A stretch of 64,000 nt of DNA from Prauserella alba (lineage in GTDB: Bacteria > Actinomycetota > Actinomycetes > Mycobacteriales > Pseudonocardiaceae), in NCBI RefSeq assembly GCF_024171735.1, contig NZ_JAMTCH010000005.1, positions 744,001 through 808,000 on the forward strand, written 5' to 3'. The notes below the pieces were generated by a model. That model did not search any database, was not told the DNA's origin, and worked only from the letters and a program-made list of their open reading frames with translations. Both the position numbers and the translations under genes were made by a program. Positions 26,883 through 53,508 of this stretch are shown piece by piece. Position 1 is the stretch's first letter, and each line of letters begins with the position of its first letter.

Positions 26883-26943
26883 AGCCGGTCCTGCACGGCT
26901 ATCCTGCGGGACCGTATCGCGATGGGGAGGCAGTGGGGCGAGA

Positions 26944-28587: not shown

Positions 28588-28600
28588 CCGGCCCGCGGTG

Positions 28601-28685
28601 GACTGTGCTCCGGTTAGGACTGTGCCCCGGTGAGGACTCTGGCCCGCTGACAACTGTGGCGCGTTGACGACTGTGGCCCCGTGAG
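28601..28685. repeat. 17-bp tandem repeat, five units
   Basis: Units begin at 28601, 28618, 28635, 28652 and 28669 with consensus GACTGTGGCCCCGNTGA, exactly 17 bp apart. The last unit is also the left arm of the following hairpin. It lies between the convergent ends of eccB and mycP. Confidence 0.75.
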
Positions 28686-28714
28686 CTCGTTTCCCGAGCG
28701 GCGGGGCCACAGTC
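28669..28714. terminator. two-way terminator hairpin between eccB and mycP
   Basis: GACTGTGGCCCC (28669-28680) pairs perfectly with GGGGCCACAGTC (28703-28714), and an inner GCTCG/CGAGC pair extends the fold. Because the genes converge here, it can serve both. The left arm is the fifth unit of the 17-bp repeat array. Confidence 0.65.
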
Positions 28715-28882
28715 GTGTTCGGACCGGTTCGATCCGGACGGGCTGGCCGGCCGAGGAGGGCGGCGCGCGGTGAGCGCCGGTGCGGCACACAGTCAGAGGC
28801 CCGGGCCCCACGTGGGGCCCGGGCCGGGTGCTCGGGTGGGAACGGCCCACCGGCTACGGCCGGCAGGTATGAACCGGTCGGA

Positions 28883-30634: not shown

Positions 30635-30743
30635 CCGAAACCCCCTTGACGTCTGTTTCCGTGCCTGCGCGTGTCGCTGTGGCTGCAGCTGGCCGGCAGT
30701 TGTCCTGCGTGCCGGTGCGGACGGCCGGCGCCCGCACCGGGTG

Positions 30744-35400: not shown

Positions 35401-36446
35401 TCATCGCCTCGAACCGGTGGGCGGACATCCGCCCGGCGATCAAGGACATGCTCGGCACGCGGTTCGAGCTGCGGCTCGGTGACCCGAGCGAGTCCGACAT
35501 CGACCGCCGGACCGCGGTGAACATTCCCGCAGCCAGGCCCGGCCGCGGTCTGACCCGCGACAAGCTGCACTTCCTCGGCGGGCTGCCGCGCATCGACGGA
35601 TCGAGCGACGACGAGACCATCGGTGACGGTGTGAGCGACGCCGTCGCGAAGATCAACGCGGCGTGGCACGGCCCGCCCGCACCGCAGGTGCGGCTGCTGC
35701 CGGAGCTCATGCCGTACGAGGACCTGCTCGCGATGGACAACCGCCGCGAGTCGAAGCTGGTGCCGATCGGCGTCGACGAGGACGAGCTGCGGCCCGTGTA
35801 CCTCGACTTCCAGGCGGATCCGCACTTCCTGGCCTACGCCGACGGCGAGTCCGGCAAGACGAACCTGCTGCGGCAGATCGTCCGCGGCATCACCGAGCGC
35901 TACACGGCGAAGGAAGCGGTGCTGATCCTCGTCGACTACCGGCGCACGATGCTCGGGTTCGTCGAGGGCGACCAGGTGCTGTCGTACGTGGTCTCGGCCA
36001 ACCAGCTCGACGGCATCGTCAAGGAGGTGACCGGGTCGATGCAGAAGCGGCTGCCCGGTCCGGACGTCACGCCGCAGCAGCTCAAGGACCGCTCGTGGTG
36101 GCAGGGACCGGAGCTGTTCGTCGTCGTCGACGACTACGACCTCGTGGCGACGCAGCAGAACAACCCGCTGCGGCCGCTGGGCGAGTACCTGGCCCAGGCG
36201 AAGGACGTCGGCCTGCACATGATCGTCGCCCGCCGCACCGGTGGTGCCGCACGGACCGGTATGGACCCGATCCTCGGCAAGCTCAAGGAACTGGCGATGC
36301 CGGGCATCGTCATGAACGGTTCCAAGGACGAGGGCCAGCTGCTCGGCAACGTCAAGGCCGGGCCGATGCCACCGGGCCGCGGCAACCTGGTCAGCCGCAA
36401 GGTGGGTAAGCAGCTCATGCACGTGTCGTGGATCAATCCCGAGTGA
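32424..36446 (+). CDS. eccC: type VII secretion ATPase EccC (fused EccCa/EccCb)
   Basis: EccC (1340 aa) is the FtsK/SpoIIIE-type motor that recognises substrates and drives export. Two Met-rich membrane segments (about 38-60 and 71-89) are followed by three ATPase domains. Their Walker A motifs are GATGSGKSE (about 487-495), GGPQSGKST (about 849-857) and DGESGKT (about 1140-1146). Walker B of the first is ALFIVVDEFSELL. An acidic (EP)n linker lies near residue 735, between ATPases 1 and 2. The single-gene form is typical of ESX-4. The GTG start is followed by the conserved STLQFKR. Confidence 0.96.
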   Translation: MSTLQFKRSPRLAAPRPPGGEVHLEPPPEVPRAIPGNIMMKILPVVMIVAMLGMVGMIMVPRLKDGGAPSPFMLMMPMMMIMSMVGMFAGGGKGGGGQKKAEMNEDRKDYLRYLGQMRERAREAMEEQRASLEWVHPDPQTLWSMAATRRMWERRQNDQDFLHLRVGRSAHRLATRLVPPQTGPVDELEPIATLALRRFVRAHSIVPDLPTQITLRGFAAVGVQGERELVRGLTRAALAQLVTFHSPEDVLIAVASTGRSKAEWEWAKWLPHTQHPTLSDGIGQLRMMAGSLAQIEQWLEEELRDRQRFSRNATPPPDQPHIVIVLDDADVTGEERLLLEEGLVGVTLVDLSDTIGNLAARRGLRLVAEPERLGARSAGGVEWFGAPDTLSLVETEALARKLSPYRVGTAAAEDGEEQPLLSNPSLLELLGIPGDPMTFDVQQAWRPRPVRDRYRVPFGVGEMGQAVELDIKEAAMEGMGPHGLCIGATGSGKSEFLRTLVLGMLATHSSTSLNFVLVDFKGGATFLGLDKAPHVSAVITNLADEVTLVDRMKDALAGEMNRRQEALKNGGNFKNVWEYEKARENGADLDPLPALFIVVDEFSELLSEKPDFIELFVAIGRLGRSLQMHMLLASQRLEEGKLRGLDSHLSYRIGLKTFSAAESRAAIGVPDAFELPSVPGGGYLKYDTSTLERFKASYVSGPYRPAGIKAAAPGAKVVRADKRPQRFVPDYIELPKEPEPEPEPEPEPQQPESEEAVEPSELDVIVGRLVGQGPPAHEVWLPPLNEPNSLDTLLPNLNPTDERGLSPVGFFGNGKLQVPLGIVDRPYEQRRDPMWADFSGGAGHGAIVGGPQSGKSTLLRTLIMSMALTHTPQEAQFYAIDLGGGTLGSLDGLPHVGGVAVARRDPDKARRIVAELTTLANERESRFGELNVDSMADFRNRKRRGDITADQDAFGDAFLVVDGWRALRDDFEELEPQITKLAVQGLAYGVHVVIASNRWADIRPAIKDMLGTRFELRLGDPSESDIDRRTAVNIPAARPGRGLTRDKLHFLGGLPRIDGSSDDETIGDGVSDAVAKINAAWHGPPAPQVRLLPELMPYEDLLAMDNRRESKLVPIGVDEDELRPVYLDFQADPHFLAYADGESGKTNLLRQIVRGITERYTAKEAVLILVDYRRTMLGFVEGDQVLSYVVSANQLDGIVKEVTGSMQKRLPGPDVTPQQLKDRSWWQGPELFVVVDDYDLVATQQNNPLRPLGEYLAQAKDVGLHMIVARRTGGAARTGMDPILGKLKELAMPGIVMNGSKDEGQLLGNVKAGPMPPGRGNLVSRKVGKQLMHVSWINPE

Positions 36447-36498: not shown

Positions 36499-38667
36499 GT
36501 GACCTTTCGCGTCGCGATCGACTTCGGCACGTCGAGCACCTGTGTCGTGGCCGCGATCGGGGAACGGCAGCCGCAGGTCGTCGTGATCGACGGCCAGCCG
36601 CTCATGCCGTCGGCGGTGTATGCGCACAGCGACGGCACGGTGTTCGTCGGCCAGGAGGCGGAACGCCAGGCCGCGGTCGATCCCGCGCGGTTCGAGCCCA
36701 CGCCGAAGCGGCGTATCGACGAGGGCGAACTGCTGCTGGGCGACACGGTGCTGCCCGTCGTCGACGTGGTCCGCACGGTGTTGTCGCGGGCCGTGGGCGA
36801 GGCCCGCAGGCTGGCGGCGAACGCCGACGTCGACCTGCTCGTGCTGACCCATCCCGCCGACTGGGGTGCGGTGCGCACGCGGCTGCTGCGGCAGGCGGCG
36901 TCCGGGCTGGGCCACGAGGTGGCACTCGTGCCGGAGCCGGTGGCGGCGGCCGTGTTCCACGCGGCGACCTACACGCCCGCGAAGGGCGACAACCCGGAGA
37001 AGACGGTCGCGTTCACCGGCAGTCCCGGCGACACGCTGGCCGTGCTGGACTTCGGCGGCGGCACGATCGACGTCAGCGTGGTGCGCAGGACGGAGTCGCA
37101 GCAGCGGCGGACGGCGTTCGAGGTGCTGGCGACGCGCGGCGACCCGGGGTTCGGCGGTGCGGACATCGACCAGGCGCTACTCGAACACGTCGGGTCGCTC
37201 GTGCCCGCGCCTGACCGCGAGGCGTGGGACGAACTCGTGCAGGGCCGCGAGCTGGCGGACCGCAGGCGCAGGCGGGTGCTCCGGCAGGACATCCGCGGCG
37301 CGAAGGAGACGCTGTCGCGGCACGCCTACAGCGATGTGCCGATGCCCCCACCGTTCGCCGACGCCCACGTCACCCGTGAACAGCTGGAAGAACTGATCGC
37401 CTCGCCGCTCGGCAGGGCCGTCGAGTTGACGCTCGCGACGGTCGAGGACGCGAAGCTGCGGGCGAAGCAGCTGACGGCGATCTTCCTGGTGGGCGGTTCG
37501 AGCCGGATCCCGATGATGTCCCGGCTGGTGCACGAGCGCACCGGTGTGGTGCCCACGACGCTCGACCAGCCGGAAACGGTCGTCGCCCGCGGTGCGCTGC
37601 GGGCGGTACAGGTGATCCCGGACCGCGGCGGCGCCGTTCCGGGCGCGCTGCCGGGGCGCAGCAGTGAAACCACGACGGTGGTCGGCCGGGACGAGGCGGA
37701 CCGCGCCGTGCAGGGCAGGCAGCCTGTTTCGGGGCAGGCGGCGCCGGGTGTGCCGGGACAGGGTGTGCCGGGACAGCAGGGTGGCCCGCCGCAGGGGTGG
37801 CACGGCGGACCGAACCCGCAGGCACCACACCCGGCAGGCCCGAACCACCCGAACCAGCAGGTCGGCGGTCGGCGGGGCCCGCAGCAGGGGCCTGCCGCGA
37901 ACCCGGGGCCGAACCCGGGGCCGACTCATCAGACATCCGCGCCGAACCAGCAGGCACCGGGCCCCGCGCGGGCGTATCCGCAGAGCGGGCCGTTCCCACA
38001 GCAGCCGGGCGGCCCGCACCAGCAGTCGGGGCCGTACGGCGGATTCGGCCCCCAGCCACAGGGGTTCGGCTCTTCGCAGGGCGCGCACGCCGGTGACGGC
38101 GGTGACGGGGAGCGCAGGCCGAACCGGAGGCGCCGCGGGCTCGTGTGGGCGGCGGCCGCGGTGGTCGGGTTGCTGCTGGCGGGTGCAGCGGGCTGGTTCT
38201 TCTTCCTGCGTGACGACCGGCCGCCCGGCGCGGAGATCGCGCGGTTCTCGTACTCGTTCGTGGCGCCCGAGGGCTGGGAGAAGGTCCTCGAGGACACCCA
38301 GAACGCCCGGGTCGCGTTCGCGCCGAAAGGGTCGGACGGCGCGGACCGGGTCGTCGTCCAGCAGATCGAGCAGGACTTCGATGCGGGCACACAGCATCGC
38401 AGGCTCTACGACACCTTGCGGGCGGAGGCCGACCGGGCGAACGCGCAGAATCCCGATCGGTATCGCGGTTTCCGCCAGCACCACACCTATGCCGGCAAGG
38501 ACACCATCCACTACGAGGAATTGCCGTCCGAGGGCGTGACCATCAAGTGGTACGTCCAGGCCAACCGTGAGGCGCAGGTCAGTATCGGCTGCCGCATCGT
38601 GGAGATGAAGCAGCGGCTCGAATCGGGCTGCAGTCAGATCGTCGGCACCCTGGAGTTCACCAACTGA
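36499..38667 (+). CDS. Hsp70-like type VII secretion-associated protein (Rv3446c family)
   Basis: A 722-aa protein with an actin/Hsp70 ATPase domain at its N-terminus: phosphate 1 AIDFGTSSTCVV, connect 1 VPEPVAAAVF, phosphate 2 VLDFGGGTIDVSVV and adenosine site FLVGGSSRIP are all intact. Instead of a substrate-binding domain it has a 150-residue Pro/Gln/Gly-rich linker, a membrane segment (about 548-568) and a soluble C-terminal domain placed outside the membrane. That architecture and the position between eccC and esxU match Rv3446c of the mycobacterial ESX-4 locus. It may be a chaperone or regulator at the secretion channel. Confidence 0.88.
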   Translation: MTFRVAIDFGTSSTCVVAAIGERQPQVVVIDGQPLMPSAVYAHSDGTVFVGQEAERQAAVDPARFEPTPKRRIDEGELLLGDTVLPVVDVVRTVLSRAVGEARRLAANADVDLLVLTHPADWGAVRTRLLRQAASGLGHEVALVPEPVAAAVFHAATYTPAKGDNPEKTVAFTGSPGDTLAVLDFGGGTIDVSVVRRTESQQRRTAFEVLATRGDPGFGGADIDQALLEHVGSLVPAPDREAWDELVQGRELADRRRRRVLRQDIRGAKETLSRHAYSDVPMPPPFADAHVTREQLEELIASPLGRAVELTLATVEDAKLRAKQLTAIFLVGGSSRIPMMSRLVHERTGVVPTTLDQPETVVARGALRAVQVIPDRGGAVPGALPGRSSETTTVVGRDEADRAVQGRQPVSGQAAPGVPGQGVPGQQGGPPQGWHGGPNPQAPHPAGPNHPNQQVGGRRGPQQGPAANPGPNPGPTHQTSAPNQQAPGPARAYPQSGPFPQQPGGPHQQSGPYGGFGPQPQGFGSSQGAHAGDGGDGERRPNRRRRGLVWAAAAVVGLLLAGAAGWFFFLRDDRPPGAEIARFSYSFVAPEGWEKVLEDTQNARVAFAPKGSDGADRVVVQQIEQDFDAGTQHRRLYDTLRAEADRANAQNPDRYRGFRQHHTYAGKDTIHYEELPSEGVTIKWYVQANREAQVSIGCRIVEMKQRLESGCSQIVGTLEFTN

Positions 38668-39074: not shown

Positions 39075-39392
39075 ATGGCTGGCGGTTTTGCAGGGACACC
39101 GGAGCAGTTCCAGAAGGCGTTCCAGGACGTGTCCGAGACCAAGGGGCAGATGGACGCCAACATGCAGAAGCTGCGTTCGAACATCGAGGCCACGTCGGCC
39201 GGCTGGCAGGGCGAGGCAGCCGGTGCGTTCCAGAACGTGATGGCCGCGTTCGACGAGAAGAACCGGAAGCTGAACCAGGCGCTGCAGGACATCGCGGACC
39301 TGCTCCAGCAGTCCGGTCACAAGTACCAGCAGGCTGAGGAGGAGCAGAACTCCGCCATCAGCAACATCGGCAACGTTCTCGGCGGCCTCTGA
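39075..39392 (+). CDS. esxU: WXG100 family protein, EsxU-like
   Basis: A 105-aa helical hairpin protein secreted by ESX systems as a dimer with its partner. The turn motif is WQG (in ATSAGWQGEAAGAFQ), and the C-terminal export signal YxxxE is seen as YQQAE. It follows the Hsp70-like gene and precedes a second WXG100 gene by 60 nt. That is the esxU-esxT order of mycobacterial ESX-4, so the symbol rests on position rather than sequence comparison. Confidence 0.88.
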   Translation: MAGGFAGTPEQFQKAFQDVSETKGQMDANMQKLRSNIEATSAGWQGEAAGAFQNVMAAFDEKNRKLNQALQDIADLLQQSGHKYQQAEEEQNSAISNIGNVLGGL

Positions 39393-39452
39393 GCAGGCGC
39401 TCCCACATCCTGATCCACCGCATTTCTTAATCTTTCTGGAGGGAAGAAGACC

Positions 39453-39740
39453 ATGGCCGGAATCAAGGTCGATTACGCGACAATCCAGACGGCGGCCGAG
39501 GACTGCAAGTCCACCGGCTCGGAGCTGGAGGCCCTGTTCGAGCAGCTGAAGAGCAACCTCGCCCCGCTCACCAGCGAGTGGGAAGGTGACGCCATGGCGG
39601 CCTGGCAGGAGCTGCAGCAGAACTGGAACAACTCGCTGGACGAGCTGAAGCAGGTTCTCGCGCAGATCGCCACCGCGCTGCCGCAGATCGCCGACTCGTA
39701 CCAGGGTACGGAGCAGGGCATCAAGGGCATGTTCGGCTGA
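39453..39740 (+). CDS. esxT: WXG100 family protein, EsxT-like
   Basis: A 95-aa WXG100 protein with the motif WEG (TSEWEGDAMAAWQ) and the signal YQGTE near the C-terminus. It probably forms a heterodimer with the product of the preceding gene. The ATG has GGAGGG about 10 nt upstream. The symbol follows the gene order esxU-esxT-rplM. Confidence 0.88.
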   Translation: MAGIKVDYATIQTAAEDCKSTGSELEALFEQLKSNLAPLTSEWEGDAMAAWQELQQNWNNSLDELKQVLAQIATALPQIADSYQGTEQGIKGMFG

Positions 39741-43219: not shown

Positions 43220-43534
43220 ATGGCCGGTGGACAACAAGCCGACCCAGGGAAGCTGCGCGCGGCCGGTGAGGCTTACACCCAGGATGGCGAACAGCTGAAG
43301 ACGGTCGGCGGAAAGCTGGAGACTGACGTCGGTGAGGCGCAGGTCGGCAAGGCTTGGTCAGACACGGCCAAGTCCTATGCGGAGGCGATAGGAAAGTACC
43401 GCGACGCCGTGACCAAGTACGGCGAACAGACGTCTGACCTGGGCGACAAGATGAAGCAGGCCGCGAACGCGTACGAGGACGGCGAAGCCGTCAACGCGGA
43501 GACCATCGCCTCCAAGGGGGTGGGGTCCAAATGA
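43220..43534 (+). CDS. EspC/WXG100-like small T7SS protein, module 1
   Basis: A 104-aa helical protein beginning MAGGQQADPGKLRAAGEAYT. The turn region is GKAWSDTAKSYAEAI and a YxxxE export signal (YEDGE) lies near the C-terminus, the layout of ESX small secreted proteins. The ATG follows GGGGGAGG by 5 nt; an upstream in-frame ATG at 43199 would lack a ribosome site. Its stop overlaps the next gene (ATGA). It is similar to the protein at 47502, where the Trp is His. Secretion is inferred. Confidence 0.75.
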   Translation: MAGGQQADPGKLRAAGEAYTQDGEQLKTVGGKLETDVGEAQVGKAWSDTAKSYAEAIGKYRDAVTKYGEQTSDLGDKMKQAANAYEDGEAVNAETIASKGVGSK

Positions 43535-46467
43535 GCATCTTCAGTCCTGAGGCGATCCAAGAAGCCGCCCGGCACAGGTTCACCGATGCAGAGCTGAAAG
43601 AGATGAAGGCTCTGCTCGACGACCCGAATATCTCGTCGGAGAATCGTGGGCAGATGCTGATGGCTCTGTCCAATGCGGGCATGGTCAGTGATCAGGAGAT
43701 CGACAAGTACTCAAGCAAGTACGGGTACGACGCGGAAGACATCAAGGAGGGCGGCGAGGCCCCGTTTGAGAATCTTTCCAACGGGGCTACGGCTTTCCGC
43801 AGGGCAAAACGTGAATCGCATCAGGGTAAAATTTCGGATGCGAAGGACGGTCTGCAGGACCTGAAGTCATACGGCTCGTCGGACCAGATCGTCGACAAGG
43901 CGAAGCTGATCATCAAGCTCTTCAGTGAATTCCATCCGAAGTACACTGAGGTGAAATCCCTCGGGTACAATGCGGAATCGGGAGAGCAGGGGAAGCGCGA
44001 GATGCCCCGCGCCGAGGTCAACAACCCGAATTCCAGTCAAGGGAAGACGGGATCGTCCGCCAAGTATTCGGCCGATGGGAACACCCCGGACGATATCCGG
44101 AAAGGTCTGGATGAGTTTCGAGGCATCGAGTTCAGCTGCTTCTGGCAGGACGCCAATGCGCTGTCGGGTACTCATGAGAAGGTTGGCGAGATAAAGGAGT
44201 CGCTGCAAGGGGCCTGGAAGGACGGCACCGCCGAGTGGGTCGGCGACGCCAAAGATGCTGCTGCCCAGCGAAACAGTTCGATCAACAAGAATGCTGGTGA
44301 TCTCTCGCAGGCCCTCAATTCCGCGGGCGACGGTGTGATGGCGGGTATTGATGCGGTCAGGGAGTGCGTCGCCCAGTACGTCGAGGTTGTGCTGGACATG
44401 TACGGGAACGGCAGGGTCTCGGGGCTGGTTCCGTCTGATGTCGATACGCTTATCAAGGTCACTCAGGAGTTTCCTGCGGGTATTCGACGCCTCAAGGAAA
44501 TGCAAAATACCAATGGCCTAGAAAGCTTCGCGGATACGGTGATGGAATTTCAGTCCTTTGGGGTTAGTCCTGGGGTTCCGCATGGCCCGTCTTCGCTGTT
44601 CGACTTTCAAGATTACAAGTTTGCGGAATTTATTCACGGTGACAACGTCGATCAGGAGCTTGCGCGGGGTCGGCAAGCCTTGAAGGATGCCGAAGCCCAG
44701 CTGAAGGCCTTCGTCGCGGCCTACGAGCAGAAGGCTGAGCAGTTCCACGGTCTTGGGCAACAGTACGTCCAGGGTATTCAGACGAACTACTCGGACATGA
44801 TCAATGCCCTCAACAAGAACCTGGGGCAGACATTCGGCGATCAGGCAGGCAATGGTGGGGACAAGCCGGCTGTTCCCGGTGGGCAGCAGACGGCGGCGCA
44901 GACCACCAATCCTGTTCAGGGCGGGGGATCATCACCCGTGGCCGGAGGCGGCCCGCAGCAACCGGGAGGCCCGCCGACGTCGCCTCCGTCGGCGTCCGTC
45001 GATCCGGCCGCGGCGGCCGAGCACGCGCCCGGGGAAGCCGGCCAAGGAGGGAACGGTCAGCCGAAACCAGGCGAAGCAGGTGAGGGCAAGAACCCCGTCA
45101 CGGGCGGCAAACTCGAAACCGATCCGGAGACCGGCGAGCCCTACCCGATCGACCCGGCGACCGGCGAGGCCGTCAAGGACGCCACCGAGCGTGACACCCT
45201 GACCGTCGAGCAGGGTGAGAAGAAGTTCGAGTTCGCCGAGCCCGATGCCAAGGGCGAGATGGAGATCTCCGTCGACGACGGCAAGGGCCCACTGAAGGAC
45301 TACAAGCTCGACTTCGGAACCGGGGACGACGCCTCCGGCGGGGCCCAGCCGGGTGGACAGACCGACGGCGGTGCGGCATCGGGCGGTGGCCAGAGTCAGG
45401 GACAGGACTCTGGTGAACCGGGTCGCCAGGATTTCGGTCCGCAGGGCTCCGGTGACGGGGCCGACGGCGCCCAGGGCGAGAAGGTCTACACACCGGATGA
45501 GGACGGCAAGATCCGCATCCAGGACGGCGACACCGAGATCGTCGCGGAGCGGCCCGACGGTCCGGACGGGCCTACCAAGGTGACCGTCGACGACGGCACG
45601 GGCGAGCCGACCACCTACACCCTCGGTGAGGAGGACGCGGCCGACTCCGGAGCAGGCGGTGCCGGTGGCGGCGGCATGCGTGCCGGCGGAGGGGGAGCCG
45701 AGTTCGCAGACCGCGATGCGGGGGCTAACGCTGCCGACATGGGCCAGGCGGCCGCCGACGACGAAGGTGCGGCGGAAGTCGGGGTCGACGGCGGTTCCGG
45801 TGGTACGGCGCGGTTGGCGGGAGATCTTGCCACCGACGGTGAAGGCGCGGCTGCCACCCCGGCCGGCGAGGCCATGCAGGCGGATCCGGCTTCCGCTGCT
45901 GCTACGGGTGAGCCCGCTTCGACACCCGACGGCATGGGCTCAACGGGCGGTGGCTCTCCCGAATCCGATGGCGGTGCCGCGGCGCAGGCCGGCCCTGCAG
46001 GAGCGTCCGGCCAGCCGGACGTCGAACAGCCGAACGCGAACGGTGACCCCGGCGGGGAGAGCGGTTCTGACGACTCCACCACGCCGGCGTCGAGTCTCGG
46101 CTCATCCCTGGGCGACGGCGCGCTCGGCGGCGGTGCTGGCGAGGCGGACGGCAGCAGCCTCGGCGACGCAGGCATGGGTGACAGCCCGGGTGGCGATGCC
46201 GCGGCCGACACCGGTGACGGCGACAACGGGGGTCCCGGCGGTTCCGGTGACCGCGGCGGCGGCTCCGGTGGTGCCGGCATGGGCGGCGGCATGATGGGCG
46301 GAGGCATGGGCGGCGCCGGAGGTGGCGGCGGTGGCGGCGACGAGGAACGGCAGAGCCAGTTCATCCTCAACGCCGTCAGCGACCTGTTCGGCGAGGCCGT
46401 GGCCGGGAACCACATCAGCGGCACGATCGGCGAGGGCGCCGGAACCGCTGTGTCCTTCGGCCGGTGA
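43531..46467 (+). CDS. large WXG-domain T7SS substrate candidate, module 1
   Basis: A 978-aa protein of no recognised family. In order: an N-terminal helical motif LLDDPNIS (28-35), a helical domain with a WXG turn (WVGDA at 236-240), and a Pro/Gly/Gln linker from about 460. Two related beta-like boxes follow, at about 555-596 (LTVEQG...MEISVDDG) and 650-698 (IRIQDG...TKVTVDDG). A Gly/Ala/Asp-rich stretch and a C-terminal tail with HISGTIGEG end it. The same order occurs in the protein at 47828. The first 430 codons use more A/T than neighbouring genes, hinting at transfer or a distinct history. Its start overlaps the preceding small gene. Confidence 0.75.
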   Translation: MSIFSPEAIQEAARHRFTDAELKEMKALLDDPNISSENRGQMLMALSNAGMVSDQEIDKYSSKYGYDAEDIKEGGEAPFENLSNGATAFRRAKRESHQGKISDAKDGLQDLKSYGSSDQIVDKAKLIIKLFSEFHPKYTEVKSLGYNAESGEQGKREMPRAEVNNPNSSQGKTGSSAKYSADGNTPDDIRKGLDEFRGIEFSCFWQDANALSGTHEKVGEIKESLQGAWKDGTAEWVGDAKDAAAQRNSSINKNAGDLSQALNSAGDGVMAGIDAVRECVAQYVEVVLDMYGNGRVSGLVPSDVDTLIKVTQEFPAGIRRLKEMQNTNGLESFADTVMEFQSFGVSPGVPHGPSSLFDFQDYKFAEFIHGDNVDQELARGRQALKDAEAQLKAFVAAYEQKAEQFHGLGQQYVQGIQTNYSDMINALNKNLGQTFGDQAGNGGDKPAVPGGQQTAAQTTNPVQGGGSSPVAGGGPQQPGGPPTSPPSASVDPAAAAEHAPGEAGQGGNGQPKPGEAGEGKNPVTGGKLETDPETGEPYPIDPATGEAVKDATERDTLTVEQGEKKFEFAEPDAKGEMEISVDDGKGPLKDYKLDFGTGDDASGGAQPGGQTDGGAASGGGQSQGQDSGEPGRQDFGPQGSGDGADGAQGEKVYTPDEDGKIRIQDGDTEIVAERPDGPDGPTKVTVDDGTGEPTTYTLGEEDAADSGAGGAGGGGMRAGGGGAEFADRDAGANAADMGQAAADDEGAAEVGVDGGSGGTARLAGDLATDGEGAAATPAGEAMQADPASAAATGEPASTPDGMGSTGGGSPESDGGAAAQAGPAGASGQPDVEQPNANGDPGGESGSDDSTTPASSLGSSLGDGALGGGAGEADGSSLGDAGMGDSPGGDAAADTGDGDNGGPGGSGDRGGGSGGAGMGGGMMGGGMGGAGGGGGGGDEERQSQFILNAVSDLFGEAVAGNHISGTIGEGAGTAVSFGR

Positions 46468-46552
46468 GCGGGCCATCGATGTCGCGAAGGCTATTCGGTG
46501 GCGCAGACCGGCGTGCCGTTCAGTTGCTCCTTGAGGTAGAGGGGAACCAGTG

Positions 46553-47011
46553 ATGGTCGAGAGCCTAGATCCGGAACTGGCGGAGAAACTCGCCGAAAAT
46601 CGGTCACGGTTACGCGCAGCCACCGCAGAGATCAACGAATGGGCGGAGCAAGCCGAACGCGAGCGTGAAGAGGCTGCGGAAGCGCGTCGACAGGCTGCCG
46701 TGCAGCTGAACAAGGAGCTCGACGAGCAGATCGCCGCAAACAAGGAAGCCAGCGAGGATCCGAACTCGAAGAACGAGTGGTTGCAGCGGCGTGACGACGG
46801 TGGCGGCCGGACGATGGACTTCGGTCCTGCCGGCGACGAGCCGGAGCAGGCGCCGGCCGATCCGGCCCCGGCACCGCCCGCCGCCCCGGCACCGCAGCCG
46901 CCGGTCGCGGAACCTCCGCAGCAGTCCACCCAGCCGGTCCGGCGTCCCGCCCGTCCCCGGAGCGACGAGGACGACGACGAGGACTTCGCCAACCGCGACT
47001 GGTTCGTCTAA
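46553..47011 (+). CDS. small coiled-coil protein with acidic tail, module 1
   Basis: A 152-aa protein. The first half is a charged helix likely to form a coiled coil (AEINEWAEQAEREREEAAEA). A Pro-rich linker and an acidic tail DEDDDEDFANRDWFV follow. The tail closely resembles that of the 50347 protein, the third gene of module 2. The ATG at 46553 is preceded by GAGGGG; the GTG one codon earlier is possible. Function unknown. A chaperone or docking role for the large substrate is inferred. Confidence 0.7.
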   Translation: MVESLDPELAEKLAENRSRLRAATAEINEWAEQAEREREEAAEARRQAAVQLNKELDEQIAANKEASEDPNSKNEWLQRRDDGGGRTMDFGPAGDEPEQAPADPAPAPPAAPAPQPPVAEPPQQSTQPVRRPARPRSDEDDDEDFANRDWFV

Positions 47012-47501
47012 TCACTCGCGCAGGCGAGGAACTCGGTTGCCGCGTGTATCCGGCTGACGGCACGCGCTGACAACGACAGCACGTACGACGGCGGTCGTCC
47101 GGCTCACCACGGTCCGGTCGGCCGCCGCCGTCGTTTCTCCGTCATGGCCGTCCCAGCCGCGGCCATCAAACCGCAGTCCGTCCCGGCGCCGCCCCTGGAC
47201 GCCGCAGCCCGCACCGGCGCAGCCCAGGAGCCGCAGACCCCTGCACGCCGCACCTCGTCCCGGCGCCGCAGGCCTCACCGCTGCAGCCCCGAAGTCGCAG
47301 CGCACCACCTTTGCGGCAGCCACCGCCCCGGCTTGCGTCACCTCGCTCACGTCGTCGTCCCCGTCGGGTGGCGGCGCCCGTTTCGCGTTCCTCCGATCTT
47401 CCCAACCCGGTACATTTCGTGTGCAGATGCGACGGCACCGATCCGGTACTCCTCGCGTCCTAGGCGGCAGACGACCACAGACGATTCCAGGGGGTGTCGA
47501 C
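47012..47501 (+). other. region between cargo modules 1 and 2
   Basis: I see no convincing gene in these 490 bases; the open frames have poor codon bias. The right end carries the element shared with module 1 (47408-47443) and then CCAGGGGG as the ribosome site of the next gene. Confidence 0.55.
47408..47443 (+). promoter_or_regulatory. promoter/leader element of cargo module 2
   Basis: CGGTACATTTCGTGTGCAG followed by CGGCACCG matches the module 1 element at 43112. It lies 59 nt before the first gene of module 2. TACATT could be a -10 box. Confidence 0.45.
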
Positions 47502-47831
47502 GTGAGCGGGGTCAACGCGCCGCAGGGGTACACGGCCGACCAGGGTTCGATGTCGAACCAGGCCACGCGCATCAGCGATGCCGCGTCGAGTGCGCAGTCG
47601 GACGTCGCCGACGTCGGCACGTCGAACGTCGGCGAGGGCGGCTTCGGCAAGGCGCACACGGATTTCGGCGGTGACTACACCGCGGGCATCCAGACGATCG
47701 GCGAGGCGGCGCAGGCCATGTGCAGTTCGCTGACGTCGTTCGCCAGCACGATCGGTGCCGCCGGGCAGCAGTACGGCGCGGCCGAGGAAACGCAGGCACA
47801 GGCGGCCAGCCAGGCGGGGAGTGGACTGTGA
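47502..47831 (+). CDS. EspC/WXG100-like small T7SS protein, module 2
   Basis: A 109-aa helical protein beginning MSGVNAPQGYTADQGSMSNQ. The turn region GFGKAHTDFGGDYTAGI lines up with GKAWSDTAKSYAEAI of the module 1 protein, with His in place of Trp. The C-terminal YxxxE signal is YGAAE. The GTG start follows CCAGGGGG, and its stop overlaps the next gene (GTGA). The longer open frame upstream is probably leader. Confidence 0.72.
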   Translation: MSGVNAPQGYTADQGSMSNQATRISDAASSAQSDVADVGTSNVGEGGFGKAHTDFGGDYTAGIQTIGEAAQAMCSSLTSFASTIGAAGQQYGAAEETQAQAASQAGSGL

Positions 47832-50290
47832 GCGAGCACACCTGGGAAGAGACGAAGGAGATCCTCGACGATCCCTACGTCTCCGCCGACACCAAGCAGG
47901 CGGTGCTCGGCAGCTACGCCATGAACGGTGACGGGAACGAGGCCGCCGAGGCGTACTACGAGAAGTACAACGTCACGCCGCACCCGTACCCCGGGGCCCC
48001 CACCGGCGGGCCTCACAGGGGCGACCCCTATGGCGCCTGGGGCAACTACGACGGCTACGACAGTGACAAGGACCCCTACGAACGGGCGCGCGAGGAGTCC
48101 GAGGAGGGCAGCTACCGCGGCCGCCAGATCGAATCGAAGCTCGAGGACAACAGCGGCGAACTCGACCAGGCGCAGCCGCCCGGCCCGGCCTCCTCGTCGA
48201 CGACGAGCATCACCACCTCGGACGAGCTGCTCGAACTGGCCAAGGATGCGCTCGACACGTTCCACAAGTTCCTGCCGATCGACGCCGAGGTCCCCGCCGA
48301 TTCGCAGCACGTCGACGGCCCGCTCGACTACGAGTCGAACATCCGCGAACCGTACTGGGAGCAGGGCGGCATCGACTTCCAGAAGTTCCTCGACGACGCC
48401 GAGCAGCTGCGCAAGGCACACGGCACGTTGCAGGAGCTGCAGAAGAGCACCCGGCAGGACCTCAACTCGCTGTATCGCGACTGGACCGGCGACGCGGCGA
48501 ACGCGTCCTACCGGCAGTACAGCGAGGACATCGAGCCGAACTCGACCGAGCTGATCGAGCACCTGTCCGGAGCCTCCGAGGTGATCGAGACCGCCGTCCG
48601 CACGGTGTTCGACACCGTCAAGCACAAGGCCGAGCAGGTCATACAGCTCTACACCCCGACGGTCGGCCAGGCCACACCGGAAACCGCGCGGAAGGTGATG
48701 ACCCTCGCGCGCGGCGAGTTCGACAACCAGGACCAGGTGCTCGAAGTGGCCGCGTGGGTCGACTCGGTGTGCGGCTCCAACCTGGAATCCACCATCCGCG
48801 CCGACGACTGCGGCCTCAACGACGAGAACAAGGAACTCGTCGTCACCGAGTGCAAGACGTGGATCCGCGAATCGTGGAACGTCGACCTGTACGAGAACCT
48901 GTACGCGTCGTTCACATCGCTGTGCGAGTCGACGAAGGAAGCCGTCGACCAGGCCTACGGCACGCTGAACGAGTACCTCGGCGGGTACGAGAACGGCTTC
49001 CCCGCGCAACCGGGCGGACAGCAGCCGGGTGTCGACGCCGGAGTGGGGACCCCCGGAACAGGTGCCGGCACGCCGGGAGCGGGCGCGGGCTCGCCCGGAG
49101 CCGGTGCAGGAACGCCGAACGTGCCCACCCCCGGGCCGGGCGTGGGCACCCCGGGCAGCGGCAGCCCCGGTGGCGGCGCTGCGGGCGGTGGCGCCGGAGC
49201 CGGTACTCCTGCCACGCCGACGCCGGAGGTCCCGACACCCGAGGCACCGGAGATGCCGGAGTTCGAGACGCCGGGCCCCGGCACGGGCGGCCTCGGCACT
49301 GACGGTGGCGGCAGTGACGGAACGGCTCCGCAGGCTGTCGGCCCCGACGGCGAACCCGACAGCCTGCTCGCCACGCCGGGCGGCGACCGCGACAAGCTCA
49401 CGGTCGAACAGGGCGACAACAAGCTCGAGATCACCGAACCCGATGTCGACGGCCAGATGGAGATCTCCGTCGACGACGGCGAGGGCCCGCTGAAGGAGCA
49501 CCGGCTCGACTTCGGCGCCGGCGACGATGCGGCCGGTGGCGACGGCAACGCAGGCGCCGGTGGCCCCGGCGGCTTCGGGCCGACGGGCACCGGCGGCGCG
49601 GGAGACGGAGCAGCCGGGGACAAGGTGTACCGGCCCGACCCGGACGGCAAGATCCGCATCGAGGACGGCGACATGAAGATCGTCGCCGAGCGGCCCGAAG
49701 GCCCCGGCGGCCCGACGCTGGTCACCGTCGACGACGGCGACGGTGAACCGACGACGTACACGCTCGACGGGTTCGGTGACGGCTCCGACGACTCCGACGG
49801 CTCCGACGGCGGAATCGGATCGCTCTCCGACGAGTTCACGCCGTCGTCGTCGATCTCCGGTGACCTCGGCGAAGCCGCCGTCGGCGCGGGTTCGATCGGT
49901 GCGGGCGCCGGCTCCATCGGCGCCGGCGCCGGTTCGGTCGGTGGCGGAGGCGGCGGCGGGTTCTCGGCCGACGGCGAGCCGCCGCAGCCGCTCGACGAGG
50001 GTTCCCGGACGAGCGGCACGACCGGTGCGCCTCCCGCGAGCAGGGCGCCCGCGGCGGCTGCGGCCCCGGCCGGCGGTGACGCCGGCGGCGGCGCAGGCGG
50101 TGGCCGCGGTGGCATGGGCGGCATGATGGGTGCGCCGATGGGCGGTGCCGGTGCCGGTGGCCAGGGCGGCGGCCAGGAACGGACGTCGAACTACCGCATC
50201 GACGGCGGCCTGTTCGACGGCTCCGAGTCCCCGCAGGCGATCACCGGCACGATCGGCGACGACCCGCCCGCCGTCCGCTACGACAAGTGA
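47828..50290 (+). CDS. large WXG-domain T7SS substrate candidate, module 2
   Basis: An 820-aa protein, paralogous to the 43531 product. It has ILDDPYVS near the N-terminus (12-19), a WXG turn WTGDA at 219-223 within a long helical domain, and a Pro/Gly/Ala linker from about 400. The boxes are at about 522-563 (LTVEQG...MEISVDDG) and 598-647 (IRIEDG...TLVTVDDG). A low-complexity stretch and a tail with AITGTIGDD complete it. I chose the GTG that overlaps the 47502 stop. It may be exported with the small protein in front of it. No enzymatic motif is visible. Confidence 0.75.
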   Translation: MSEHTWEETKEILDDPYVSADTKQAVLGSYAMNGDGNEAAEAYYEKYNVTPHPYPGAPTGGPHRGDPYGAWGNYDGYDSDKDPYERAREESEEGSYRGRQIESKLEDNSGELDQAQPPGPASSSTTSITTSDELLELAKDALDTFHKFLPIDAEVPADSQHVDGPLDYESNIREPYWEQGGIDFQKFLDDAEQLRKAHGTLQELQKSTRQDLNSLYRDWTGDAANASYRQYSEDIEPNSTELIEHLSGASEVIETAVRTVFDTVKHKAEQVIQLYTPTVGQATPETARKVMTLARGEFDNQDQVLEVAAWVDSVCGSNLESTIRADDCGLNDENKELVVTECKTWIRESWNVDLYENLYASFTSLCESTKEAVDQAYGTLNEYLGGYENGFPAQPGGQQPGVDAGVGTPGTGAGTPGAGAGSPGAGAGTPNVPTPGPGVGTPGSGSPGGGAAGGGAGAGTPATPTPEVPTPEAPEMPEFETPGPGTGGLGTDGGGSDGTAPQAVGPDGEPDSLLATPGGDRDKLTVEQGDNKLEITEPDVDGQMEISVDDGEGPLKEHRLDFGAGDDAAGGDGNAGAGGPGGFGPTGTGGAGDGAAGDKVYRPDPDGKIRIEDGDMKIVAERPEGPGGPTLVTVDDGDGEPTTYTLDGFGDGSDDSDGSDGGIGSLSDEFTPSSSISGDLGEAAVGAGSIGAGAGSIGAGAGSVGGGGGGGFSADGEPPQPLDEGSRTSGTTGAPPASRAPAAAAAPAGGDAGGGAGGGRGGMGGMMGAPMGGAGAGGQGGGQERTSNYRIDGGLFDGSESPQAITGTIGDDPPAVRYDK

Positions 50291-50346
50291 GCGCGCGACG
50301 ACGAGTGACGCGGCGGCAGGCGAGGACATGACAGCGGGAGAGACAC

Positions 50347-50811
50347 ATGGCTGAGGGCAGGGCGGCGGCTGCACTCGCCCGGTTCGACCAGATCAACCGG
50401 GAACTGGCCGACCGGCGGGCGCTGCGCGAACGCAAGGCCGCCGAGGCGAAGCAGCGCGCGTCGGAGAACCTCGCGCGGCGCGGCGAGGTCGCGGAGCGTT
50501 CGGCGAAACACCTCATCGAGCTGGCGAAACGCCAGCGGGCGAACAGTGGTTTCGACACCGGACGTTCGCGAGAGGACGAGGAGCACGTGCTGCAGTTCGG
50601 TGTCGAGGACGAGTCGGTCGCCACCGCGGAGCCGTCGACGTACACCGCGGAGCGGCCGACGTACACCGCGGAGCGGCCCACTCAGCACACGGCACCTGCG
50701 CAGGGAGCACCTCCGCAGGCACCGCCGCCCGCACCGCAACCCGTGCGCAGGGCAGCGCCGGCTTACGACGAGGATGACGAGGACTTCTCCAACGAGACCT
50801 ATCTGAAATGA
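50347..50811 (+). CDS. small coiled-coil protein with acidic tail, module 2
   Basis: A 154-aa protein: a basic helical first half (LARFDQINRELADRRALRER), two copies of YTAERPT near residues 98-111, a Pro-rich linker and an acidic tail YDEDDEDFSNETYLK. The tail matches that of the 46553 protein. The ATG follows CGGGAGAG. Its stop overlaps the ACP start (ATGA), so the cargo module runs straight into a fatty-acid/polyketide-type gene set. Confidence 0.7.
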   Translation: MAEGRAAAALARFDQINRELADRRALRERKAAEAKQRASENLARRGEVAERSAKHLIELAKRQRANSGFDTGRSREDEEHVLQFGVEDESVATAEPSTYTAERPTYTAERPTQHTAPAQGAPPQAPPPAPQPVRRAAPAYDEDDEDFSNETYLK

Positions 50812-51110
50812 GCGTCCCCGAGATGAATGTCGACGAGAGTGCCGGCGCGCCGGCCGTGACGAATCCCGTGGTCCGCGAGCGGGCGGGGGAGATCAAGGCG
50901 TTGGTGTGCCGGGTGCTGGAGACCGAGCCGGATGCGGTGGGACTCGAGGACCGGTTCGTCGATGATCTGGGTGCGGACTCGATGAAGCTGATCGAGTTGC
51001 TGTCGCACTTGGAGATCGAGTTCGACGTCGAGATCGACGAGGACGAGCTCGACCGTCTGGTGCATCTGCGGGGCGTGTACGACGTGCTCGGCGACGTCGT
51101 CGGCGCGTAG
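50808..51110 (+). CDS. acyl carrier protein
   Basis: A 100-aa carrier with the 4'-phosphopantetheine site Ser58 in LGADSMKLIELL. The rest is the usual four-helix fold; helix 3 is acidic (DVEIDEDELDRLV). The first 20 residues form a flexible extension. Its ATG overlaps the stop of the T7SS module 2 gene, and the ketosynthase begins 2 nt after its stop. It probably carries the chain for the two ketosynthase-like proteins downstream. Confidence 0.92.
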   Translation: MSVPEMNVDESAGAPAVTNPVVRERAGEIKALVCRVLETEPDAVGLEDRFVDDLGADSMKLIELLSHLEIEFDVEIDEDELDRLVHLRGVYDVLGDVVGA

Positions 51111-51112
51111 GC

Positions 51113-52351
51113 GTGACCGGTTCGGGTTCGCGGGCGCAGCGGCGACGCGTGGTCGTGACGGGTGTCGGCGTCGTGTCGTCCATCGGCACCGGTGCCGACG
51201 CCTACGCGCGCGGGCTGCGGGAAGGCCGCAGCGGGGCGCGCCCGATCGAAGCGTTCGACACCACCGGGTTCGCGCACGCCACCGGCTGTGAGGTCGTCGG
51301 GTTCGATCCGGAGCTGTGGCTGCGTCGGGTGCCCGTCGCGGAGGCGGGCAGGGCGACCCAGTTCGCGATCGCCTCGGCCAGGATGGCGCTCGACGACGCG
51401 GGGATCGGCGAGGACGGCCTGCGTGACCGGCGCGGGCTCGTGTCCGTCGGCACCACCGATGGCGGCTCCGACGACGGTGAACGCCTCGCCGCCTCGTTCG
51501 TCCACGACGGTCCCGCCGCGGCCGACCCTGCCGCCGCGCGCCGGGTACCCGCGAGCCGCCTCGCCACCGGCGTCGCCCGCGACCTGGGGCTCGCCGACGT
51601 CGAGGTGTCGACCATCGCCACCGCCTGCGCGGCGGGCAACTACGCCATCGGCGGCGGCGTCGACGCGATCCGCACCGGCGAGGCCGACTACGCCCTCTGC
51701 GGCGGCGCCGACGCCCTGTGCCGCATGACGTTCACCGGCTTCTACCGCCTCGGCGCGGTCGACCCCGATCGGTGCCGGCCGTTCGACGTCGACCGCCACG
51801 GCATCCACACCGGCGAAGGCGGCGCCGTGCTGCTGCTCGAACCCCTCGACGACGCGCTCGCCCGCGGCGCCCGGATCTACGCGGAAGTGCTCGGCTACGG
51901 CCTCAACTGCGACGCCCACCACCAGGTCGCCCCGCACGGGGAGAGCGTCGCCCGCTGCATGGCGCTGGCCCTCGACGACGCAGGCATCTCGCCCGGCGAC
52001 GTCGACCTGATCTCCGCGCACGGCACCGGCACCAAGGCGAACGACGTCACCGAGTGCGGCGCGATCCACAGCGTGTTCGGCGCCGACGGCGACGTCCCGC
52101 CCACCGTGTCGGTGAAGTCGATGCTCGGTCACACGATGGGCGCGGCCAGTGCGCTCGGCGCGGTGGCGTGCGCTCTCGGTATCGACGGCGGCTTCATCCC
52201 GCCGACGATCAACCACACCGAGACCGACCCGGAGTGCGCCGTCGACTGCGTCCCCAACACCGCCGTGGACGCCGAGCTGGGCGTGGTGGCGAACAACGCG
52301 CTCGCGTTCGGCGGCAACAACGCGGTGCTCGTGCTGGGCAGGCCCGCATGA
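51113..52351 (+). CDS. beta-ketoacyl-ACP synthase (KS-alpha type)
   Basis: A 412-aa condensing enzyme of the FabF/type II polyketide class. The catalytic triad is intact: Cys172 in IATACAAGNYA, His303 in SAHGTGTKAND and His340 in MLGHTMGAAS. It would extend a chain bound to the neighbouring ACP with a malonyl unit. Its stop overlaps the next gene (ATGA), which encodes a partner lacking the active Cys. This is the KS-alpha/CLF arrangement of type II polyketide synthases. No ketoreductase, cyclase or tailoring gene is visible nearby, so the product is unknown. Confidence 0.93.
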   Translation: MTGSGSRAQRRRVVVTGVGVVSSIGTGADAYARGLREGRSGARPIEAFDTTGFAHATGCEVVGFDPELWLRRVPVAEAGRATQFAIASARMALDDAGIGEDGLRDRRGLVSVGTTDGGSDDGERLAASFVHDGPAAADPAAARRVPASRLATGVARDLGLADVEVSTIATACAAGNYAIGGGVDAIRTGEADYALCGGADALCRMTFTGFYRLGAVDPDRCRPFDVDRHGIHTGEGGAVLLLEPLDDALARGARIYAEVLGYGLNCDAHHQVAPHGESVARCMALALDDAGISPGDVDLISAHGTGTKANDVTECGAIHSVFGADGDVPPTVSVKSMLGHTMGAASALGAVACALGIDGGFIPPTINHTETDPECAVDCVPNTAVDAELGVVANNALAFGGNNAVLVLGRPA

Positions 52352-53508
52352 CCGGGGCGGTGATCACGGCGTGGTCGGCGATCTCGGCGTGCGGAATCGG
52401 CGCCGCCGCCCATCGCGTGGCCTACGGCGACCCGGCCCGCAGGCTCCGGCCGACCGCGGTGGGCGAGCCGGTGCCCGCCGAAGCCCACGTGGCCGCGGAC
52501 TTCGACGTCACCGAGGCCCTGGGCCCGAAGGGCACGTCGTCGATGGACCGCTGCAGCGGCCTGGCCGTCGCCGCCGCGGCCGACCTCCTCGCCCCCGGGG
52601 AACGCCCCCAAGGGCACTTTGGTTGCATTCAACGCAACCAAAGTGCCCCCGGGGGCATCGCACCACCGAGCGGGATCGGCGTGGTGCTGGGAACCACGTC
52701 GGGCAGCGCGCAGACCCAGTTCGACTTCACGCGCGAATCGCAGACCCGTTCCAAGCCGTACCGCGTCAACCCGGCGCTCATGCCGTTCGCACTGATGAAC
52801 AGCGCCGCAGGCCAGACCGCCATCTGGCACGGCCTCACCGGGCCGAACACGACCATCGCGGGCGGGCGCATGTCCGGGTTGTCGACCCTCCGCTACGGCG
52901 CGCGGCTACTAGCCACCGGCCGCGCGGACGCTGTGCTGTGCGGCGCCGTCGAGGAGTACGGCCCCGCCCGCCAAAGGCTCGCCGACCAGCGGAAACCCGA
53001 CGACGCCGACGGCCGGCCGCTGGGCGAAGGCGGTGCCGTCCTGCTGCTCGAACCCGCGGCGCACGCCCCGGCGGGCCACGTCGACCCGGACCGGACCGAC
53101 GCGAATCGGACTGACACGGACCGGACCGACGCGAATCGGCCGGGCGGGCGCGTCCCGTTGGCCGAACTGCTGGGCATCGACACGCGGGTCGCCGTCGACG
53201 ACGACCCGGCGGCGGCGCTCGAGGTCTGCATCCGCCGCACCCTCGACCGTGCCGGTGCCGCCGCGAGCGACGTGCGCACCGTCGCCGTGTCGGGCCCGCC
53301 CGGGCCGCTCGCCGGTGCCGAACGTGACGCCGTCGCGCGCACCCTCGCGCACGCCGACGTGCGCGATCCGGGCGAGATCATCGGCGACACCGGCGCCGCG
53401 ACCGGCCCGTTCCAGGTCACGCTGTTGCTCGACCGTCCCGGACTCGCCCTGACGACCGCCGTCGACGAGGACGGCACGGTCGGCTGCGGCCTGCTGCGCG
53501 TGCCCTGA
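52348..53508 (+). CDS. chain-length-factor-like ketosynthase (KS-beta), with REP-derived insert
   Basis: A 386-aa ketosynthase homolog without a catalytic Cys. The region aligning to the active site reads TTIAGGRMSGLSTL, placing Arg where the partner has Cys172. It probably forms a heterodimer with the KS-alpha and sets chain length. Codons at 52604-52656 come from a palindromic REP-family element, read in frame as RPQGHFGCIQRNQSAPGG before the strand GIGVVLGTTSG. A 30-bp duplication at 53087-53139 adds a second Asp/Arg/Thr-rich stretch. The ATG overlaps the KS stop. Confidence 0.88.
   Translation: MTGAVITAWSAISACGIGAAAHRVAYGDPARRLRPTAVGEPVPAEAHVAADFDVTEALGPKGTSSMDRCSGLAVAAAADLLAPGERPQGHFGCIQRNQSAPGGIAPPSGIGVVLGTTSGSAQTQFDFTRESQTRSKPYRVNPALMPFALMNSAAGQTAIWHGLTGPNTTIAGGRMSGLSTLRYGARLLATGRADAVLCGAVEEYGPARQRLADQRKPDDADGRPLGEGGAVLLLEPAAHAPAGHVDPDRTDANRTDTDRTDANRPGGRVPLAELLGIDTRVAVDDDPAAALEVCIRRTLDRAGAAASDVRTVAVSGPPGPLAGAERDAVARTLAHADVRDPGEIIGDTGAATGPFQVTLLLDRPGLALTTAVDEDGTVGCGLLRVP
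52604..52656. repeat. REP-family palindrome inside the CLF-like gene
   Basis: A 53-bp palindrome with 23-nt arms that differ at only two positions, starting GCCCCCAAGGGCACTTTGGT, around a 7-nt centre. It is the best-preserved full copy in the window. The reading frame stays open through it and adds about 17 residues. Confidence 0.75.
53087..53139 (+). repeat. 30-bp in-frame direct duplication in the CLF-like gene
   Basis: The 23-nt block starting CGGACCGGACCGACGCGAAT occurs at 53087 and 53117, 30 bp apart. It encodes DRTDANRTDTDRTDANR, a loop-like hydrophilic segment. Confidence 0.7.

What the first reader, a model, noticed from the sequence alone, without database searches (positions are those of the whole stretch)
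43220..50811. Duplicated three-gene cargo module attached to the ESX-4 locus
Two consecutive modules share the same plan: a roughly 105-aa EspC/WXG100-like protein with YxxxE, an 820-978 aa WXG-containing protein, and a roughly 150-aa coiled-coil protein. The first two genes overlap by 4 bp in both modules. Paralogy shows at several points. GKA(W/H)(S/T)D occurs in the small proteins. LLDDPNIS/ILDDPYVS, WVGDA/WTGDA, the VDDG boxes and a tail with GTIG occur in the large ones. A DDEDF tail occurs in the third proteins. I know of no described system with this set; it looks like a T7SS effector or surface-protein system with its own accessory protein.
Basis: partly seen in the sequence, partly recalled or inferred. 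Interest (0 to 1): 0.85.

Follow-up and report, generated by a model that had tools for sequence, protein, structure and literature searches.

The report
Conserved ESX-4 cargo module, doubled
Next to an ancient bacterial secretion machine lies a three-gene set that looks like overlooked cargo plus a helper; many related soil bacteria carry one set, this one carries two, and the second set runs into an operon with lipid-making genes.

Summary
In detail: two A-B-C modules (43220-47011, 47502-50811), with A and B overlapping by 4 bp in each. It is not a private or recent duplication. In 99 genomes tallied the large protein B was found in 67. In 48 of 53 Pseudonocardiaceae it lies just downstream of glmM, near ESX-4; in a second family it lies there in 15 of 22 genomes (12 genera); in two members of a third family it sits behind eccC instead. 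B was absent from all 7 genomes where eccC was not found. B1 and B2 fall in two old clades. A is EspC/WXG100-like with YxxxD/E. B has a WxG helical domain, Gly/Pro linkers, two copies of a beta unit without a Pfam match and a conserved tail. C is small, charged, and ends in a conserved acidic-SWL motif. I read A-B as ESX-4 cargo and C as chaperone or adaptor. New here: the beta unit, the C tail, and the coupling of module 2 to ACP, ketosynthase and chain-length-factor genes, while relatives couple the same B clade to a fatty acyl-AMP ligase and ACP. That hints at a lipid-modified or lipid-handling cargo. Secretion was not tested.

The parts
24935..32138 (.). ESX-4 core, first half: eccE (24935-26821 -), eccB (26944-28587 +), mycP subtilase (28883-30634 -), eccD (30744-32138 -)
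   Evidence: EccE 4.6e-54, EccB 2.3e-104, Peptidase_S8 7.3e-35, EccD 4.9e-86
32424..36446 (+). eccC, the secretion ATPase
   Evidence: TIGR03924 EccCa and TIGR03925 EccCb, both over cut-off
36499..38667 (+). Hsp70-like domain fused to an Rv3446c-type T7SS domain
   Evidence: HSP70 3.5e-31; TIGR03931 8.3e-18, over cut-off; one hydrophobic stretch near residue 551
39075..39740 (+). two WXG100 genes (esxT/esxU position)
   Evidence: WXG100 over cut-off
43220..43534 (+). A1: small helical partner, YEDGE near the C-terminus
   Evidence: WXG100 1.5e-7 (32 bits, cut-off 27.3); PPE 26.2 bits (cut-off 26); EspC 23.4 bits (cut-off 23.5)
43531..46467 (+). B1: large WxG cargo protein, 978 aa, beta units at residues 557-595 and 661-699
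   Evidence: 4-bp overlap with A1; Pfam WXG100 only 13.2 bits
46550..47011 (+). C1: charged protein, tail DEDDDEDFANRDWFV
47502..47831 (+). A2: small helical partner, YGAAE near the C-terminus
   Evidence: WXG100 17 bits, under cut-off; family alignment
47828..50290 (+). B2: large WxG cargo protein, 820 aa, beta units at residues 524-562 and 609-647, tail ITGTIGDD
   Evidence: TIGR03930 41.2 bits against cut-off 44.85; WXG100 27.4 against 27.3 for the N-terminal part
50347..50811 (+). C2: charged protein, tail DEDDEDFSNETYLK
50808..51110 (+). ACP, 4-bp overlap with C2, keeps the serine (ADSM)
   Evidence: PP-binding 6.4e-12; sequence printed
51113..52351 (+). ketosynthase (KS), keeps the cysteine (TACAAG)
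   Evidence: best PDB match 6kxd chain A, E 1.2e-152
52348..53508 (+). chain-length-factor-like KS partner, Gln (AAGQ) at the place of the cysteine (placement by eye), 4-bp overlap with KS
   Evidence: best PDB match 6kxd chain B, E 1.2e-49

Best explanation
Each module encodes a cargo pair of the neighbouring ESX-4 type VII secretion system plus a cytosolic helper. A (EspC/PE-like helical hairpin) pairs with the WxG helical domain of B; A's C-terminal YxxxD/E is the export signal read by the machine; the pair leaves the cell folded, and B becomes a long envelope or extracellular protein whose two beta units do the outside work. C stays inside and holds or hands over B before export, its charged helix and conserved acidic-SWL tail being the docking parts. 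Shown: gene order, domains, motifs, two-copy beta units, linkage to and co-occurrence with ESX genes. Inferred: secretion, pairing, role of C. In module 2 the coupled ACP-KS-CLF supplies an acyl chain that acts on the same cargo or at the same place (weakest step).
For: Position: B just downstream of glmM in 48 of 53 Pseudonocardiaceae, glmS seen beyond it in 43 of the 48; eccC or esx genes seen upstream in the same stretch in 41 of 43 unnamed loci. Second family: B in 17 of 22, in 15 of them downstream of glmM. Third family: G025 and G081 have A-B-C straight behind eccC and the esx genes and not at glmM, so the module goes with ESX. Co-occurrence: an eccC in 63 of 63 B-positive genomes checked (4 more not checked); B in 0 of 7 genomes without eccC. 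A: 19 of 42 match EspC and 17 of 42 WXG100 at E up to 0.01; YxxxD/E in 53 of 66, shuffle mean 9.5, maximum 22. B: WXG100 at E up to 0.1 in 24 of 28; W and G invariant in 28. A/B spacing at most 20 bp in 46 of 56, exactly -4 in 21. No membrane-like hydrophobic stretch in the six proteins. C tail in 46 of 63; in the second family 6 of 8 small same-strand ORFs behind B end in or near WL.
Against: No secretion, interaction or expression data. 25 genomes have an eccC and no B, so ESX does not need it; the eccC query finds any ESX type, and in 4 of those 25 (G032, G039, G075, G077) the match is weak (30-32%). The AlphaFold model of the B2 N-terminal part is poor (pLDDT 57) and its best fold match, PPE41, is not significant (E 0.05). 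The B profile contains a WXG domain and matches Esx proteins at E down to 1e-10; for 4 of the 17 second-family genomes (G031, G085, G139, G107) the match is no better, so these rest on position, with an A match beside it in G085 and G107. A1/A2 likeness alone is weak and A2 lies under the WXG100 cut-off. Two further genomes (G095, G101) show A without a B match. In 6 of 14 second-family B loci no C follows.
Confidence: 0.7

Rival explanations
1. A-B is a polymorphic toxin pair and C its immunity protein, as in LXG systems.
For: A WxG domain on a large protein followed by a small gene is the usual toxin-immunity order; several tandem copies in some genomes.
Against: The C-terminal part of B is not a variable toxin domain: two beta units in 59 of 68 and a conserved tail. 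No toxin family matched B1 or B2; full-length B of other genomes was not scanned except G081. C has a widely conserved tail, unlike immunity proteins that diverge with their toxin (recalled).
Confidence: 0.08
2. B is a structural or gating part of the ESX-4 apparatus, or an envelope pore of PPE type, not a released cargo.
For: Linkage to ESX genes in three families; Foldseek ranks PPE41 first, though not significantly.
Against: Absent from 25 eccC-positive genomes; no membrane-like stretch in B1 or B2; long Gly/Pro-rich stretches.
Confidence: 0.12
3. ACP-KS-CLF is an independent small polyketide locus that only happens to sit downstream of module 2.
For: Most modules have no ACP: 11 of 53 family genomes have one beside the module. 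KS-CLF resembles a solved KS pair.
Against: 4-bp overlap C/ACP in 7 of 9 loci with that order; a fatty acyl-AMP ligase plus ACP lies upstream of a module in 3 other loci, in L045 with an 8-bp overlap, a 5-bp gap and a 1-bp overlap along ligase-ACP-A-B. Of the 14 rows of the B2 clade 11 are ACP-linked; the one other ACP-linked copy (G053) was not in the tree.
Confidence: 0.45

Closest known systems
EspA-EspC-EspD of mycobacterial ESX-1 (recalled)
   Same: EspC-type small protein, larger partner and a third small protein in one operon, tied to a T7SS
   Different: Here the order is A-B-C and B is two to three times larger (recalled sizes), with two beta units; the locus is ESX-4; C matches no Pfam family and was not compared with EspD
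PE-PPE and EsxE/EsxF-CpnT cargo pairs (recalled)
   Same: Small helical partner plus a WxG helical domain at the N-terminus of a larger protein; A1 itself passes the PPE cut-off
   Different: B matches WXG100 (24 of 28) and hardly PPE (1 of 28 at 0.028); none of the six proteins is EspG-like and no toxin family matched B1 or B2
Rv3440c-Rv3439c of Mycobacterium tuberculosis (position recalled, sequences not compared)
   Same: By recall they lie between glmM and glmS near ESX-4; genus g26 shows A-B there (L126, L099; B alone called in L127), with A of L126 over the EspC cut-off
   Different: B of g26 is 439-443 aa; no beta unit was found in L099, and no C motif in L126. No call names g26. The gene names occur in 6 papers of the library; listing only
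EsxT/EsxU, the established ESX-4 cargo
   Same: WXG100 proteins of the same locus
   Different: Separate genes upstream of rplM; A-B-C lies beyond rplM-rpsI-glmM, outside the locus as described in PMC9401124 (passages)

Membership tests
T7SS cargo pair (WXG100/EspC superfamily) | small partner with YxxxD/E near the C-terminus | tested here: met
   53 of 66 A proteins, shuffle mean 9.5, maximum 22; A1 and A2 both
T7SS cargo pair (WXG100/EspC superfamily) | WxG turn in the larger partner | tested here: met
   W219 and G221 invariant in 28 sequences; WXG100 in 24 of 28
T7SS cargo pair (WXG100/EspC superfamily) | export depends on EccC | not testable with these tools
   only co-occurrence and linkage tested
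EspC family (PF10824) | match over the Pfam cut-off | tested here: inconclusive
   A1 23.4 bits, cut-off 23.5; A2 no match; 19 of 42 relatives at E up to 0.01, best 1.2e-8; A of L126 over cut-off
PPE family (PF00823) | PPE match in the large protein | tested here: not met
   1 of 28 at 0.028; A1, not B, passes the cut-off
LXG/polymorphic toxin | variable C-terminal toxin domain | tested here: not met
   conserved beta units and tail; no toxin family in B1 or B2
ESX-4 locus | eccB, eccC, eccD, mycP and two WXG100 genes near rpoA, rplM and rpsI | tested here: met
   that this neighbourhood defines ESX-4 is recalled
type II KS-CLF with ACP | KS with Cys, partner without it, ACP with Ser | tested here: met

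The most novel reading that the evidence does not exclude
Module 2 makes a lipid-modified (or lipid-carrying) type VII cargo: an acyl chain built by KS-CLF, or activated by a fatty acyl-AMP ligase in sister genera, is loaded on a dedicated ACP and placed on B (or C) before ESX-4 exports the pair, giving an envelope-anchored cargo. Two unrelated acyl sources tied to the same cargo clade would be convergent evidence.
Probability: 0.2. Interest if true: 0.85.

Novelty: new variant of a known kind. Interest (0 to 1): 0.6.

Why it matters
[quoted passage not shown] Papers tying CpnT and heme use to ESX-4 exist (listings only). A conserved cargo-plus-helper module three genes past the usual locus end makes the question directly testable. 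The two-copy beta unit of B1/B2 has no match in Pfam or NCBIfam, nor has the tail of C a Pfam family. The coupling to ACP with KS-CLF or FAAL would, if functional, be the first link I know of between T7SS cargo and acyl chemistry (searches showed none in their listings).

Tried and rejected
Scan of viral contigs with B1: none. Plasmid and phage records with the B2 N-terminal part: no match. B profile over 148 genomes drawn from the class: 4 with E up to 1e-10, all four in the order; this search scores at most 13 candidates a genome and missed G031, G085 and G139, so absence outside the order is not proved. Foldseek of the beta region (model pLDDT 66): nothing significant, best E 0.018. Considered and dropped: C as a YbaB-like protein (among 43 C proteins only stray hits to four other families in 1-2 members each); B as a toxin; a recent tandem duplication. 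In some searches I gave the hydrolase ORF in a wrong frame, so their zero result for it means nothing; the P. salsuginis copy matches a PET-hydrolase-like family over its cut-off.

Sets cut before counts: the B profile A1 used 28 of 29 N-terminal parts; later alignments used 43 of 51 C, 42 of 56 A and 23 of 49 long B proteins listed (my choice; the last alignment was not used further). The tree kept 75 of 82 B rows (domain over 150 aa). The 68 rows include a few wrong neighbours (for example L054_13, L077_6, L060_5), left in the counts; spacing counts leave out the window and the four named loci. Genes in relatives come from my own codon-score script; their starts are rough. Samples are related species, so counts are not independent trials.
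Full report
What is there. It holds an ESX-4 type locus: eccE, eccB, mycP, eccD, eccC, an Hsp70-like gene with an Rv3446c-type domain and two WXG100 genes, then rplM, rpsI, glmM, then the six genes of the finding. Coordinates, 4-bp A/B overlaps and quoted motifs are right. Module 2 runs on: C2 overlaps an ACP gene by 4 bp, KS follows after 2 bp, and KS overlaps a CLF-like gene by 4 bp. Then come a hydrolase-like ORF on the other strand (PET-hydrolase-like in the P. salsuginis copy) and glmS.

Is the likeness more than chance? For the large proteins yes: E 4e-30, carried by the VDDG region (55%), with 21% in the N-terminal part. For A1/A2 the pairwise signal is weak (0.007), for C1/C2 not significant. 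Family comparison helps. The C tail fits a strict pattern in 46 of 63 proteins against a shuffle mean of 0.02 (pattern written after seeing the tails). YxxxD/E, a known motif, is near the end of A in 53 of 66 against 9.5.

How widespread. I looked at the glmM region and at B in 99 genomes (tally). Family f1 (that of Prauserella, Pseudonocardiaceae): B domain in 45 of 53, tail only in 3, none in 5 (G008, G010, G050, G058, G069; G050 ends at a contig edge). In all 48 B lies downstream of glmM; glmS was seen beyond it in 43 and not reached or not found in 5 (for the 43 unnamed loci; window and L039-L042). In the 43 unnamed loci eccC or an esx gene is upstream in the same stretch in 41; for the other two (G014, G022) eccC lies just beyond the stretch. 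Family f8: B in 17 of 22, downstream of glmM in 15 (12 genera), upstream of rplM in G104, about 10 kb away in G135. An A match lies beside B in 11 of the 14 of these 15 that one search shows with B (G073 came). Other families: 2 of 24, both in f2. So B is in 67 of 99. Of the 17 in f8, 13 have profile matches beyond what a lone WXG domain gives (G140 only just); G031, G085, G139 and G107 do not and rest on position, with A matches in G085 and G107. The A of G085 passes the EspC cut-off on its own.

Link to T7SS. eccC was searched in 52 genomes at E up to 1e-60 and found in 45; in others it was seen in the fetched stretch. All 63 B-positive genomes checked have an eccC; 4 were not checked. None of the 7 without eccC has B at E up to 1e-7. 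25 B-negative genomes have an eccC, so the reverse does not hold; in 4 of these the eccC match is weak. The query finds eccC of any ESX type. In f2 the module sits directly behind eccC and the esx genes in G025 and G081, while G040, of the same family and without eccC, lacks it. In G107, G113 and G031 no ESX genes lie beside glmM, an eccC is elsewhere in the genome, and A-B has stayed.

Anatomy. A: 19 of 42 match EspC, 17 WXG100, 5 PPE at E up to 0.01; A1 passes the WXG100 and PPE cut-offs and misses EspC by 0.1 bit. B: helical N-terminal part with invariant W and G, WXG100 in 24 of 28; then Gly/Pro-rich stretches; then units of about 40 residues, exactly two in 59 of 68 B proteins, one in 1, none found in 8; each is predicted as four strands (pLDDT about 80 in the strands, 66 overall, 6 sequences); then a Gly/Met-rich stretch and a tail of the type GDQER..YR..G.LFD...RI.G.LGDD. 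The unit pair was found in no other protein: all 20 matches at E up to 1e-4 in 31 genomes lie in B genes of this locus (positions held); the search missed B of G011, G012 and G018, so it is not exhaustive. In f8, 5 of 12 rows outside g26 end in AELAEAGPL or close to it. C: mostly 60-235 aa, charged; among 43 only stray Pfam hits; ends in an acidic run plus FSNxSWL-like residues. In f8, 8 of 14 B rows have a small same-strand ORF behind them and 6 of these end in or near WL, four of the eight junctions... counted by eye, B/C overlap is -4 in L131, L136, L140, L141 and L142; C of G081 (f2) ends in SHWLT. In the window genome the C profile finds only C1 and C2.

Duplication. The tree (75 rows) puts B1 in one clade with single-module proteins of other genera (11 rows, 100/99) and B2 in another (14 rows, 98/100). 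More than one module at the locus is seen in 13 of the 48 family genomes with B, three copies in G014 and G052. So the modules are old lineages kept or gained side by side. Long branches make the deeper joins unsure.

Lipid genes. ACP lies beside the module in 11 of 53 family genomes: ACP-KS-CLF downstream in 8 (G000, G004, G005, G006, G015, G053, G062, G065), ACP alone in G002, ligase-ACP upstream in G021 (two loci) and G048. The C/ACP overlap is 4 bp in 7 of 9 loci of that order (window, L039, L040, L042, L043, L077, L086; not in L041 or L089 as called). The ligase of L045 is of the FAAL type: its closest solved relatives include FadD32, and it matches NCBIfam fatty-acid--AMP ligase subfamilies below their cut-offs. 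KS and CLF best match the two chains of 6kxd, which I recall as the ishigamide pair Iga11-Iga12; PMC8358021 (passages) describes that pair without the code. Of the 14 rows of the B2 clade 11 are ACP-linked; the ACP-linked B of G053 was not in the tree.

Mechanism. Best reading: A-B is exported by ESX-4 as a helical pair, A carrying the signal and B the function outside; C serves the pair inside the cell. Shown: order, motifs, co-occurrence, linkage. Inferred: export, pairing, the role of C, any acylation. By recall the plan resembles EspA-EspC-EspD of ESX-1; C was not compared with EspD.

Literature. PMC4791881 section 5 (read) describes ESX-4 clusters as eccB-D, mycP, eccC and two WXG genes, found also in non-mycolate orders; the module is not mentioned in that section. 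PMC9401124 and PMC11791044 (passages) place esxUT next to the L13 gene and call for further ESX-4 substrates. Rv3440c/Rv3439c occur in 6 papers (listing). The listings of searches showed no description of the module. Subscription papers and preprints are not held, so an earlier description elsewhere is possible.

Noticed in passing
36499-38667: Hsp70-like domain fused to an Rv3446c-type T7SS domain; a like gene lies behind eccC in many loci of the family.
   Followed up: partly
G000:C3:740145-740378 and 742778-742993, just before the window: Two further WXG-domain matches in ORFs of 372 and 507 aa on the minus strand, 1-4 kb before the window start; the second is under the family cut-off.
   Followed up: no
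L058 (G014): Three A-B-C modules, one of them between rpsI and glmM.
   Followed up: partly
50808-53508: ACP-KS-CLF with no ketoreductase or dehydratase recognised by eye between it and glmS; product unknown.
   Followed up: partly
L054 (G025) 12334-13877: A second WXG-domain protein and an EspG-family gene behind the A-B-C module in an ESX locus of another family.
   Followed up: no
L130, L133, L134, L135, L140, L157: B of several second-family genera ends in a different conserved string (AELAEAGPL-like).
   Followed up: partly
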